From NCBI RefSeq assembly GCF_017301615.1, contig NZ_CP059066.1, forward strand, positions 2,277,001-2,341,000: a stretch of DNA of 64,000 bases. Reading direction: 5' to 3'. The notes below the pieces were generated by a model. The model was not told where the DNA came from and did no database searches. It saw only the letters and a program-made list of their open reading frames with translations. A program made the translations under genes and the position numbers. Position 1 is the first letter of the stretch; each line of letters opens with the position of its first letter. This document shows, in pieces, positions 39,102 through 44,020 of this stretch. Origin of the DNA: Koleobacter methoxysyntrophicus. Its GTDB lineage: Bacteria > Bacillota > Thermosediminibacteria > Koleobacterales > Koleobacteraceae.

Positions 39102-39887
39102 ATGAGTAAAGATTTATTAGAAAAAACTAGAAGGATAAACAAACTGCTTCAAAGGTCTGCCGGCTATCCGGTAGATTTTAACGAGATGTGCAGGGAATTA
39201 AGTAATGTCCTTTCTGCAAATGTATATGTTGCAAGCAGGAAGGGAAAGGTTTTAGGGTTTGCTTTGGTTGAAGATTACAAATGCGAGGTAGTAAAAGATG
39301 AAGTTTTAGAGGAAAGAAAGTTTCCGCAAAAGTATAATGAAATGCTTTTGGAGATTCATGAAACAAGCCCGAATATAAAACCTGAAACATTAAACTGTGT
39401 ATTTGATAATATAACTGAATGTGTGTATCCTAATAAACTTACTACAATTGTTCCTATAAATGGCGGTGGTGAAAGATTAGGCACATTAGTGTTGGCGAGA
39501 TTCGGTGAAGAATTTACAGATGAAGACCTTATTTTAGCTGAGTACAGTGCGACGGTTGTCGGGATGGAAATCTTGAGGTCTAAAAGCGAAGAAATTGAAG
39601 AGGAAGCAAGGAAGAAGGCTGTAGTTCAGCTGGCTATAGGAACCTTATCATATTCTGAACTAGAAGCGGTTGAACATATATTTGAAGAACTGGATGGGAA
39701 TGAAGGGCTTTTGGTAGCAAGCAAGATTGCTGATAGAGTCGGAATAACCAGGTCTGTAATAGTTAATGCCCTTAGAAAATTTGAAAGTGCAGGTGTAATT
39801 GAATCAAGGTCATTGGGTATGAAAGGAACATATATAAAAATACTCAATGACAAACTTCTGGAGGAACTAAAAAAATTAAAATCATAA
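39102..39887 (+). CDS. codY: GTP-sensing transcriptional pleiotropic repressor CodY
   Basis: CodY senses GTP and branched-chain amino acids and represses nutrient-stress genes during growth. The 261-residue protein has an N-terminal GAF domain to about residue 155, a linker helix, and a winged helix-turn-helix with [21 protein letters not shown] near residues 205-225 and [13 protein letters not shown] near the end. GAAGGAGGAAAATTTA precedes the ATG. In B. subtilis it follows clpQY and precedes flgB, exactly as here; in this window a terminator and a riboswitch separate it from the flagellar operon. Confidence 0.97.
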
Positions 39888-39912
39888 AATGCGTGATATT
39901 CACGCATTTTTT
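39887..39912 (+). terminator. intrinsic terminator after codY
   Basis: AAAATGCGTGA pairs with TCACGCATTTT around a TAT loop and runs into nine or more T. It ends the hslVU-codY transcript before the flagellar leader. Confidence 0.9.
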
Positions 39913-39989
39913 TTTATAAAAAAACAAGGATTTTTTTATAACATGTCGAATTATTTCTATGATAAAATAACCAAATTGAATATAAAAAT

Positions 39990-40085
39990 CCCGAAAAGGC
40001 AAACTTTACCGAAAGGAAAGGACGCAAAGCCAAAGGGCTAAAGGTAGTTAACACTACTATGCTAGCTTGGCTACCGAAGGAGATC
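39990..40085 (+). promoter_or_regulatory. c-di-GMP-I (GEMM-I) riboswitch aptamer upstream of flgB
   Basis: The leader has the GEMM-I core in the right order: GGCAAAC, a hairpin CTTTaCC-GAAA-GGAAAG capped by a GNRA tetraloop, GGACGCAAAGCC, then GGGCTAA and a second stem closed by GGTAG and CTACC, ending CCGAAGG. These are the conserved segments that bind cyclic di-GMP. A terminator follows directly, so high c-di-GMP could stop transcription of the flagellar operon, as is known for the flgB leader of Clostridioides difficile. AGTTAA at 40046-40051 is complementary to TTAACT at 40086-40091 and may form part of an alternative fold. A weak TTTATA-17-TATGAT promoter lies at 39935-39963. Confidence 0.9.
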
Positions 40086-40092
40086 TTAACTG

Positions 40093-40120
40093 TTCAATAC
40101 CTTTTGGCATTGAATTTTTT
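40093..40120 (+). terminator. riboswitch expression-platform terminator
   Basis: TTCAATACC pairs with GGCATTGAA around a TTTT loop with one mismatch, then TTTTTTTATTTTTT. It lies 8 bases after the aptamer and 135 bases before flgB, as expected for transcriptional control. The 130 bases from here to flgB are AT-rich and hold only the ribosome site. Confidence 0.85.
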
Positions 40121-40254
40121 TATTTTTTGAAAAATATTTTCTTAAATTTATGTTAAAAAGAAGGGATATTAAAAAAAAAATCGAATTAAGTAATAATATG
40201 GTATTTAATGTTAAGTTACCCAAATAGAAAATTTTATTTCCAGGAGGGATTAAA

Positions 40255-40668
40255 TTGCCCCAAATTTATTCTAATATCGACCTGTTTGAGAAGGTATTAG
40301 ATGCCTTATGGCTTAGAAATGAAGTAATATCAAATAACATTGCGAATGTTAATACACCAGGATTTAAATCCTCTTCTGTAGTTTTTGAAGATATATTGAA
40401 AAAGGAGATAGAAGAAAAAGGGACCGGCATTAAAGGCTATATTACCCATAATAAACATATTCCTATAGGGAAAAAGGGATTAATGGATATAAGGCCACAG
40501 GTTGTTATAAATAAAAATACTGCTCTGCGCAATGACGGGAACAACGTAGATATAGATAATGAAATGGCTCAGCTTACAAAAAATACCCTCAAATATAATT
40601 CAATTGTACAACTGGTTATGAAGGAATTCAGCATATTAAAGAATATCGTAAATGAAGGGAGAAGATAA
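40255..40668 (+). CDS. flgB: flagellar basal body rod protein FlgB
   Basis: FlgB forms part of the proximal rod of the flagellum and is exported by the flagellar type III system. The 137-residue product has the rod/hook N-terminal motif SNNIANVNTPGFKS near residues 24-37 and a C-terminal helical part (NEMAQLTKNTLKYNSIVQL). The start is TTG at 40255 after CAGGAGGGATTAAA. It is the first gene of a flagellar operon controlled by the riboswitch. Confidence 0.95.
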   Translation: MPQIYSNIDLFEKVLDALWLRNEVISNNIANVNTPGFKSSSVVFEDILKKEIEEKGTGIKGYITHNKHIPIGKKGLMDIRPQVVINKNTALRNDGNNVDIDNEMAQLTKNTLKYNSIVQLVMKEFSILKNIVNEGRR

Positions 40669-43010: not shown

Positions 43011-44020
43011 ATGGGTCTTCAGCAACAGCTAAACGGAAAACAAAAAGCAGCTATTCTTTTGGTTACCCTTGGCCCTGATAAAGCTGCCGATATTTTTAGA
43101 CACCTTAGAGAAGATGAAATAGAACAGCTTACCCTGGAAATAGCGAATCTCAGAAAGGTTTCGAATGAGGAAAAACTGAAAGTGATTGAGGAGTTTCATC
43201 AAATGTGCGTTGCTCAAGAATATATAACTCAGGGTGGGATCGAATATGCCAAGGAAATCCTTGAAAAGGCTTTAGGTTCTCAAAAAGCCGTTGATATTAT
43301 AAACAAATTAACCGCTTCACTGCAGGTAAGACCCTTTGAATTTATAAGAAAAACAGAACCGGCTCAACTTATGAATTTCATACAAAATGAGCATTCTCAA
43401 ACAATTGCCCTTATTATGGCATATTTGAGACCGGAACAATCGGCTATTATCCTTTCATCACTCCCCCCGAGAAACAAGTAGATATAGCAAAAAGGATCGC
43501 CACAATGGATAGAACATCTCCTGATGTAATCCATCAGGTAGAAAAGGTTTTAGAAAAACAGCTTTCTTCTTTGGTTACCCTCGACTATACAAGTGCTGGC
43601 GGCATACAAAATGTTGTTGATATCTTAAATAATGTAGATAGAGGAACAGAAAAAAATATCCTTGAGGCATTGGAAGCAGAAGACCCCGAATTAGCTGAAG
43701 AGATTAAGAGAAGGATGTTTGTATTTGAAGATATTGTTACTCTTGATAACAGGTCAATTCAAAGGGTAATTCGAGAAATTGATAATAAAGAATTAGCTCT
43801 TGCACTAAAGGGTTCGAGCCATGAAGTTAATGAAGTTATTTTCAGAAATATGTCCAAACGTTTAGCCGAGATGATAAAAGAGGATATGGAATATATGGGA
43901 CCTGTTAGATTAAGAGATGTTGAAGAAGCCCAGCAGAAAATAGTGAATATAATCAGAAAACTAGAAGAAACTGGAGAGATTATTATATCTAGAGGTGGAG
44001 GCGATGAGATAATTGTCTAA
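43011..44020 (+). CDS. fliG: flagellar motor switch protein FliG, reading frame broken by a one-base shift
   Basis: FliG forms the C ring and transmits torque from MotA. The N-terminal part (MGLQQQLNGKQKAAILLVTLGPDKA) and the C-terminal part (torque helix near FEDIVTLDNRSIQRVIREID) are both intact but lie in different frames. The first frame ends at LSSLPPRNK and a stop at 43479-43481; the expected LSSLPPEKQVDIAKRIATMDRTSP is restored if one C is added to the C6 run at 43463-43468. The total would be 336 residues, normal for FliG. A sequencing or assembly error in the homopolymer is the simplest explanation; a real mutation or a -1 slip at CCCCCC is possible. Confidence 0.9.

What the first reader, a model, noticed from the sequence alone, without database searches (positions are those of the whole stretch)
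39990..40120. c-di-GMP-I riboswitch plus terminator at the head of the flagellar operon
The leader holds all GEMM-I core segments and a following intrinsic terminator, placed between the codY terminator and flgB. This would put about 24 kb or more of flagellar and motor genes under c-di-GMP control at transcription elongation. The arrangement is like that known in C. difficile, but the host here appears to be a different lineage, and AGTTAA/TTAACT complementarity hints at the switching helix.
Basis: partly seen in the sequence, partly recalled or inferred. Interest (0 to 1): 0.6.

Follow-up and report, generated by a model that had tools for sequence, protein, structure and literature searches.

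The report
c-di-GMP riboswitch-terminator before flagellar operon
A standard RNA sensor for the bacterial signal c-di-GMP sits just before the flagellar operon and probably stops its transcription when the signal is high; it is a real but ordinary member of an arrangement known from C. difficile and found here in many other related bacteria.

Summary
Rfam's c-di-GMP-I (GEMM-I) model hits window 39988-40078 at 74.8 bits (cut-off 35), full length. A hairpin with a U-tract follows (40092-40122); flgB starts at 40255. The gene cluster runs on past the window, about 32 kb in all, through sigD and a PilZ/YcgR gene. The genome has four such aptamers and seven GGDEF matches.

Most likely it is a transcriptional OFF switch. 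Better is aptamer strand GCCAAAGGG (40029-40037) with the terminator apex CCUUUUGGC (40100-40108): nine contiguous pairs excluding both aptamer core and terminator. Holding the aptamer raises predicted terminator pairing from 0.43 to 0.98 (0.30 to 0.46 for a longer 5' end).

In the only other held genome of the family the aptamer is gone, while the terminator remains, without the mismatch and the aptamer-mimicking apex seen here.

It is not new in kind. The aptamer is intact at 6 of 22 same-class codY-flgB junctions, and lies before flgB, always in sense, at 25 of 93 other flgB loci of the phylum (14 families) and in two Bacillaceae. C. difficile Cdi1_3 is the tested precedent. Nothing was measured here.

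The parts
39102..39887 (+). codY, upstream neighbour
   Evidence: TIGR02787, 397 bits
39886..39910 (+). codY intrinsic terminator
   Evidence: 11-pair hairpin plus T-tract
39935..39963 (+). weak sigma-70-like promoter candidate TTTATA-17-TATGAT; would start transcription near 39970
   Evidence: 9 of 12 matches; promoter-like sites in the region are no more frequent than in shuffles; inferred
39975..39981 (+). 5'-leader AUUGAAU, able to pair with the terminator 5' arm
   Evidence: helix of up to 8 pairs including G-U; 4% of leader shuffles reach it
39988..40078 (+). c-di-GMP-I (GEMM-I) aptamer
   Evidence: RF01051, 74.8 bits, full length
40029..40037 (+). switching strand GCCAAAGGG: aptamer core helix 5' strand, or antiterminator 5' strand
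40043..40051 (+). GGUAGUUAA: in the predicted ligand-free fold pairs with UUGGCUACC (40067-40075), freeing the switching strand
   Evidence: minimum-energy folds
40079..40084 (+). P1 3' strand GGAGAU, pairs with AUCCC (39988-39992) with one bulge
40086..40091 (+).
   Evidence: enforced-helix fold -29.4 against -30.6 kcal/mol for the preferred ON fold
40092..40122 (+). intrinsic terminator: hairpin 40092-40115 and U-tract
   Evidence: about -7 kcal/mol; hairpin and T-tract conserved in same-family G001
40100..40108 (+). antiterminator 3' strand CCUUUUGGC, the terminator apex
   Evidence: nine contiguous pairs with 40029-40037
40255..40668 (+). flgB, first gene of the flagellar cluster
   Evidence: TIGR01396, 109 bits
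40671..63435 (+). flagellar and motor genes flgC to an flhG-like gene; the cluster continues beyond the window through PilZ/YcgR, cheB, cheA, cheW, cheC, cheD, sigD and fapA

Best explanation
It is a c-di-GMP class I riboswitch with an intrinsic terminator, working as a transcriptional OFF switch for the early flagellar operon. When c-di-GMP is high the aptamer folds and keeps GCCAAAGGG (40029-40037) paired inside its core; the terminator at 40092-40122 can then form and most transcripts end after roughly 135-150 nt. When c-di-GMP is low, the aptamer 3' strand can pair with GGUAGUUAA (40043-40051) instead; GCCAAAGGG is then free to pair with CCUUUUGGC (40100-40108), which breaks the terminator, and polymerase reads into flgB and on towards sigD. 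Shown: the aptamer match, the hairpin and U-tract, the competing complementarities and the gene order. Inferred: ligand binding, direction of the switch, the exact antiterminator, the start site and operon-length transcription.
For: Full-length RF01051 match far above cut-off; intact conserved segments in an alignment with 19 other aptamers. Antiterminator of nine contiguous pairs; aptamer-terminator duplex energy reached by 1.9% of shuffled terminators and 0.17% of random apices that keep the hairpin. Holding the aptamer raises terminator pairing from 0.43 to 0.98, or from 0.30 to 0.46 with the longer 5' end, and removes the antiterminator. In same-family G001, where no sense aptamer is found, the terminator is kept but the A.C mismatch and CCUUUUGGC are absent. 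Class relatives G008, G011, G013 and G014 have their own antiterminators next to the same aptamer. The genome encodes GGDEF proteins. The aptamer recurs in sense before flgB in 25 of 93 sampled loci outside the class. The C. difficile counterpart is a tested OFF switch (PMC6200980, PMC3649979).
Against: Predicted ligand-free energies of the antiterminated and terminated folds are nearly equal (-30.6 and -31.4), so the basal state is uncertain. Nine-pair helices alone arise in 20% of shuffles. With a 5' end at 39970 the leader AUUGAAU competes and the predicted effect is small. The terminator stem is weak. One C. difficile class I switch (Cdi1_1) showed induction rather than repression (PMC3649979), so OFF is not universal. 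The comparison with G001 is a single case.
Confidence: 0.82

Rival explanations
1. Same OFF switch, but the switching helix is the reader's: GGUAGUUAA (40043-40051) with UUAACUGUU (40086-40094).
For: Nine pairs including three G-U; 2% of loop shuffles reach this length. The enforced fold, -29.4 kcal/mol, also contains the GCCAAAGGG/CCUUUUGGC helix, so both could act together.
Against: It covers only the foot of the terminator stem (40092-40094), so alone it does not exclude the terminator; the fold with GGUAGUUAA/UUGGCUACC is slightly more stable.
Confidence: 0.12
2. ON switch: the 5' tail AUUGAAU (39975-39981) pairs with the terminator 5' arm around a folded aptamer, so that ligand favours read-through.
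For: A helix of up to 8 pairs with the 40091-40098 region; 4% of leader shuffles reach it. Folds from 39970 prefer it, also with the aptamer held.
Against: With the aptamer held, terminator pairing still rises rather than falls (0.30 to 0.46). By eye the segment is missing from the aptamer-bearing leaders of the class. Class I switches at flgB in C. difficile are OFF. The start site is unknown.
Confidence: 0.05
3. The riboswitch no longer matters: it is decaying, or flgB is mainly transcribed from a promoter downstream of the terminator.
For: The junction often lacks the aptamer: intact in 6 of 22 class leaders, decayed in G004, not found in the rest. Weak promoter-like sites lie at 40127 and 40169. 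fliG is frameshifted in this assembly.
Against: All conserved aptamer segments are intact at 74.8 bits. Terminator and antiterminator complementarity are both present. Promoter-like sites are no more frequent than in shuffles.
Confidence: 0.06

Closest known systems
C. difficile Cdi1_3 (Cd1), c-di-GMP-I riboswitch of the flgB operon (PMC6200980, PMC3649979, PMC11477304)
   Same: Class I aptamer upstream of flgB with premature termination before the gene; the operon includes sigD. There c-di-GMP causes termination.
   Different: Other host lineage. In C. difficile the promoter lies 496 bp upstream of the start codon and the terminated RNA is about 160 nt; here the leader is shorter (about 285 nt if the start is near 39970). 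C. difficile also has an invertible flagellar switch upstream of flgB (PMC7446863 abstract); none was looked for in detail here. The Cdi1_3 sequence was not compared.
c-di-GMP-I leaders of flgB in other Bacillota found here (G013, G014, G008, G011, G005 in the class; 25 loci in 14 families outside it; Neobacillus soli and a Bacillus MAG)
   Same: Aptamer in sense orientation closely upstream of flgB, in most cases with a hairpin and T-tract after it.
   Different: Terminator sequences and the strand best able to break the terminator differ between lineages.
B. [quoted passage not shown]
   Same: A c-di-GMP riboswitch in a 5' UTR in Bacillota.
   Different: Controls an adhesin gene rather than flagellar genes; only the abstract was seen.

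Membership tests
c-di-GMP-I riboswitch (RF01051) | Covariance-model score above the curated gathering score over the full aptamer | tested here: met
   74.8 bits against 35, positions 1-87 of 87
c-di-GMP-I riboswitch (RF01051) | Conserved ligand-pocket segments GGCAAAC and CGCAAAG, and the C of the 3' strand | tested here: met
   GGCAAAC 39998-40004, CGCAAAG in 40023-40029 and C40074 present; assignment to Vc2 residues G20, A47 and C92 is from memory
c-di-GMP-I riboswitch (RF01051) | c-di-GMP rather than cAMP-GMP selectivity (G at position 20) | tested here: inconclusive
   The sequence has G at the inferred position 20; position and rule are from memory and selectivity needs binding assays
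c-di-GMP-I riboswitch (RF01051) | Binds c-di-GMP | not testable with these tools
   Needs in-line probing or calorimetry
Transcription-terminating OFF riboswitch of flgB (Cdi1_3 type) | Intrinsic terminator between aptamer and flgB | tested here: met
   Hairpin 40092-40115 and U-tract, conserved in G001
Transcription-terminating OFF riboswitch of flgB (Cdi1_3 type) | Antiterminator that excludes both aptamer and terminator | tested here: met
   GCCAAAGGG/CCUUUUGGC, by sequence and folding only
Transcription-terminating OFF riboswitch of flgB (Cdi1_3 type) | c-di-GMP increases termination | not testable with these tools
   Predicted direction is OFF; needs transcription assays

The most novel reading that the evidence does not exclude
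The 5'-terminal AUUGAAU, not seen by eye in the aptamer-bearing leaders of the class, acts as a third strand competing for the terminator, so that start-site choice tunes or even reverses the response of this riboswitch to c-di-GMP.
Probability: 0.08. Interest if true: 0.45.

Novelty: new member of a known kind. Interest (0 to 1): 0.22.

Why it matters
Riboswitch control of the flagellar operon is best known from C. difficile. The element here, and the recurrence of the same arrangement in many Bacillota families with frequent absence and with different antiterminator strands around one aptamer, suggest that it is a general but evolutionarily labile way to tie motility to c-di-GMP. In this genome c-di-GMP may act on motility twice from one gene cluster: on the RNA through this switch, and on the motor through the YcgR-type PilZ protein encoded in it.

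Tried and rejected
Inverted riboswitch in same-family G001: a 12.2-bit minus-strand match to RF01051 had no support from a class-specific model, with no hit at E up to 10; rejected. AGUUAA/UUAACU as the main switching helix: demoted. The minimum free energy of the whole leader has a z-score of only -1.59; the energy model does not favour the native aptamer fold, so this was not used as evidence. Constraint folds used a wrong register for the terminator and were redone. No paper on flgB-linked c-di-GMP-I switches outside C. difficile turned up in the held library, which is not proof that none exists. The host could not be named by the tools; a paper search for Koleobacter gave nothing useful.

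Full report
Observation. The Rfam c-di-GMP-I model matches window 39988-40078 (+) over its full length at 74.8 bits against a gathering score of 35. It is the only Rfam hit in the window. It lies between codY (39102-39887) with its terminator (39886-39910) and flgB (40255-40668). A hairpin, GUUCAAUACC-UUUU-GGCAUUGAAU (40092-40115, about -7 kcal/mol, one A.C mismatch), and the tract TTTTTTTATTTTTT follow the aptamer.

Gene context. Within the window, genes on the + strand run from flgB through flgC, fliE, fliF, fliG, fliH, fliI, fliJ, flgD, flgE, motA, motB, fliL, fliM, fliY, cheY, fliO, fliP, fliQ, fliR, flhB, flhA and flhF to a MinD-like gene in the flhG position. Beyond the window follow a YcgR-type PilZ protein, cheB, cheA, cheW, cheC, cheD, a sigma factor in the sigD position and a FapA protein, up to a transposase gene. 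From flgB to the last small ORF before the transposase is about 31.9 kb. Terminator-like sites inside the part within the window are no more frequent than in shuffles. That it is one transcript is inferred from gene order.

c-di-GMP in this genome. Four c-di-GMP-I aptamers and seven GGDEF matches are present. Of the other three aptamers, one precedes a gene with Cache and HAMP domains, a chemotaxis-receptor architecture. One precedes a gene for a protein with IPT/TIG-like repeats (by eye), and one, on the minus strand of L002, precedes a small sigma-like ORF (by eye).

Mechanism. In the aptamer, AGCC/GGCU, AAG/CUU and GGC/GCU form the core helix. The same 5' strand, GCCAAAGGG (40029-40037), can pair with CCUUUUGGC (40100-40108) through nine contiguous pairs with one G-U. 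That helix excludes both the aptamer core and the terminator. The aptamer-terminator duplex energy is -16.7 kcal/mol; 1.9% of dinucleotide shuffles of the terminator, and 0.17% of random apices that keep the hairpin, do as well. By helix length alone the match is not striking, since 20% of shuffles reach nine pairs. In the best ON fold the aptamer 3' strand is taken up by GGUAGUUAA/UUGGCUACC. With the aptamer held, terminator pairing rises from 0.43 to 0.98 for RNA starting at 39985 and from 0.30 to 0.46 for RNA starting at 39970, and the antiterminator disappears. This predicts an OFF switch. The ligand-free energies of the two end states are close (-30.6 and -31.4), so the prediction leans on the aptamer being stabilised by ligand.

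Nearest relative. In G001, the only other held genome of the family, codY and flgB flank a leader in which no sense-strand aptamer is found by Rfam or by a class-specific model. The terminator is conserved as UUUCAAUACUUUCGGGUAUUGAA with a similar T-tract; it has U opposite the A that is mismatched here, and it lacks CCUUUUGGC. This fits the view that the mismatch and the apex are kept here for the antiterminator, but it is one comparison only.

Class and phylum. Among 22 codY-flgB junctions in the class, the aptamer is intact in six (G000, G005, G008, G011, G013, G014) and decayed in G004 (33.0 bits with RF01051; 41.1 with the class model). The class model finds none in the rest. G020 keeps the upstream flank AAAAAATCCCTAAAAA without the aptamer (by eye). 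Of 93 flgB loci sampled elsewhere in the phylum, 25 carry it within about 600 nt upstream (flanks of 1,500 nt were searched in 13 of them), all in sense and in 14 families (families counted by hand). The sample is the best-scoring part of a FlgB search, so the fraction is not an unbiased frequency. Two named contigs, Neobacillus soli and a Bacillus MAG, carry it about 110-130 nt before flgB. Among 29 leaders with a scored hairpin, the strand best able to break it was the core 5' strand in 9, the core 3' strand in 11 and the P1/linker strand in 9; this is a rough energy ranking that includes weak cases and hand-picked hairpins.

Host. Two same-class genomes have the sizes I remember for Thermosediminibacter oceani (2,280,035) and Tepidanaerobacter acetatoxydans (2,761,252), so the host is probably in that class and outside the C. 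difficile family. The closest named FlgB relatives are a Tepidanaerobacteraceae MAG and a Clostridiaceae MAG. This rests partly on memory and does not carry the argument.

What is known. In C. difficile, c-di-GMP binding to Cdi1_3 terminates transcription before flgB, most class I switches are OFF switches, and the operon includes sigD (PMC6200980, PMC3649979, PMC11477304). The present element is a new member of that kind.

Verdict. Real, well placed and very probably functional, but not new in kind. The additions are a revised antiterminator, the extent of the gene cluster, the recurrence and absence of the aptamer at this junction, and an enriched TG(G/T)C(G/T)AA motif in the same intergenic regions (33 found, 1.9 expected over 22 leaders).

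Noticed in passing
window 43011-43481 and 43505-44020: fliG is split into two ORFs in different frames: the first matches FliG positions 7-157, the second 169-338. The break lies just after a run of six C, and fliG is intact in same-family G001 (346 aa), so this is a sequencing error or a real frameshift.
   Followed up: partly
window 39944-39950, and the codY-flgB intergenic regions of 22 same-class genomes: A TG(G/T)C(G/T)AA motif resembling the Spo0A box occurs in every one of the 22 intergenic regions, 33 copies against 1.9 expected from shuffles, with or without a riboswitch. In the genome, the longer form AAGGA-N8-18-TGTCGAAT occurs 7 times against 2 for the reversed control. The Spo0A reading is from memory.
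   Followed up: partly
L087 1020-1131 (G001, same family): Between codY and flgB the aptamer is replaced by unrelated sequence of unknown nature while the terminator remains; only a 12-bit minus-strand match to c-di-GMP-I was seen, which a second model did not support.
   Followed up: partly
L134 1303-1406 (G004): A decayed c-di-GMP-I aptamer (33.0 bits, below cut-off) with GGAAAAC in place of GGCAAAC, still followed by a hairpin and T-tract before flgB.
   Followed up: partly
L292 449-1087 (genome 2340449-2341087): A YcgR-type PilZ protein (PF12945 and PF07238) is encoded in the same gene cluster, so a c-di-GMP-binding motor brake and the riboswitch may belong to one operon.
   Followed up: no
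L292 9402-11147: A DDE transposase gene sits at the 3' end of the flagellar-chemotaxis cluster, before rpsB (rpsB by eye).
   Followed up: no
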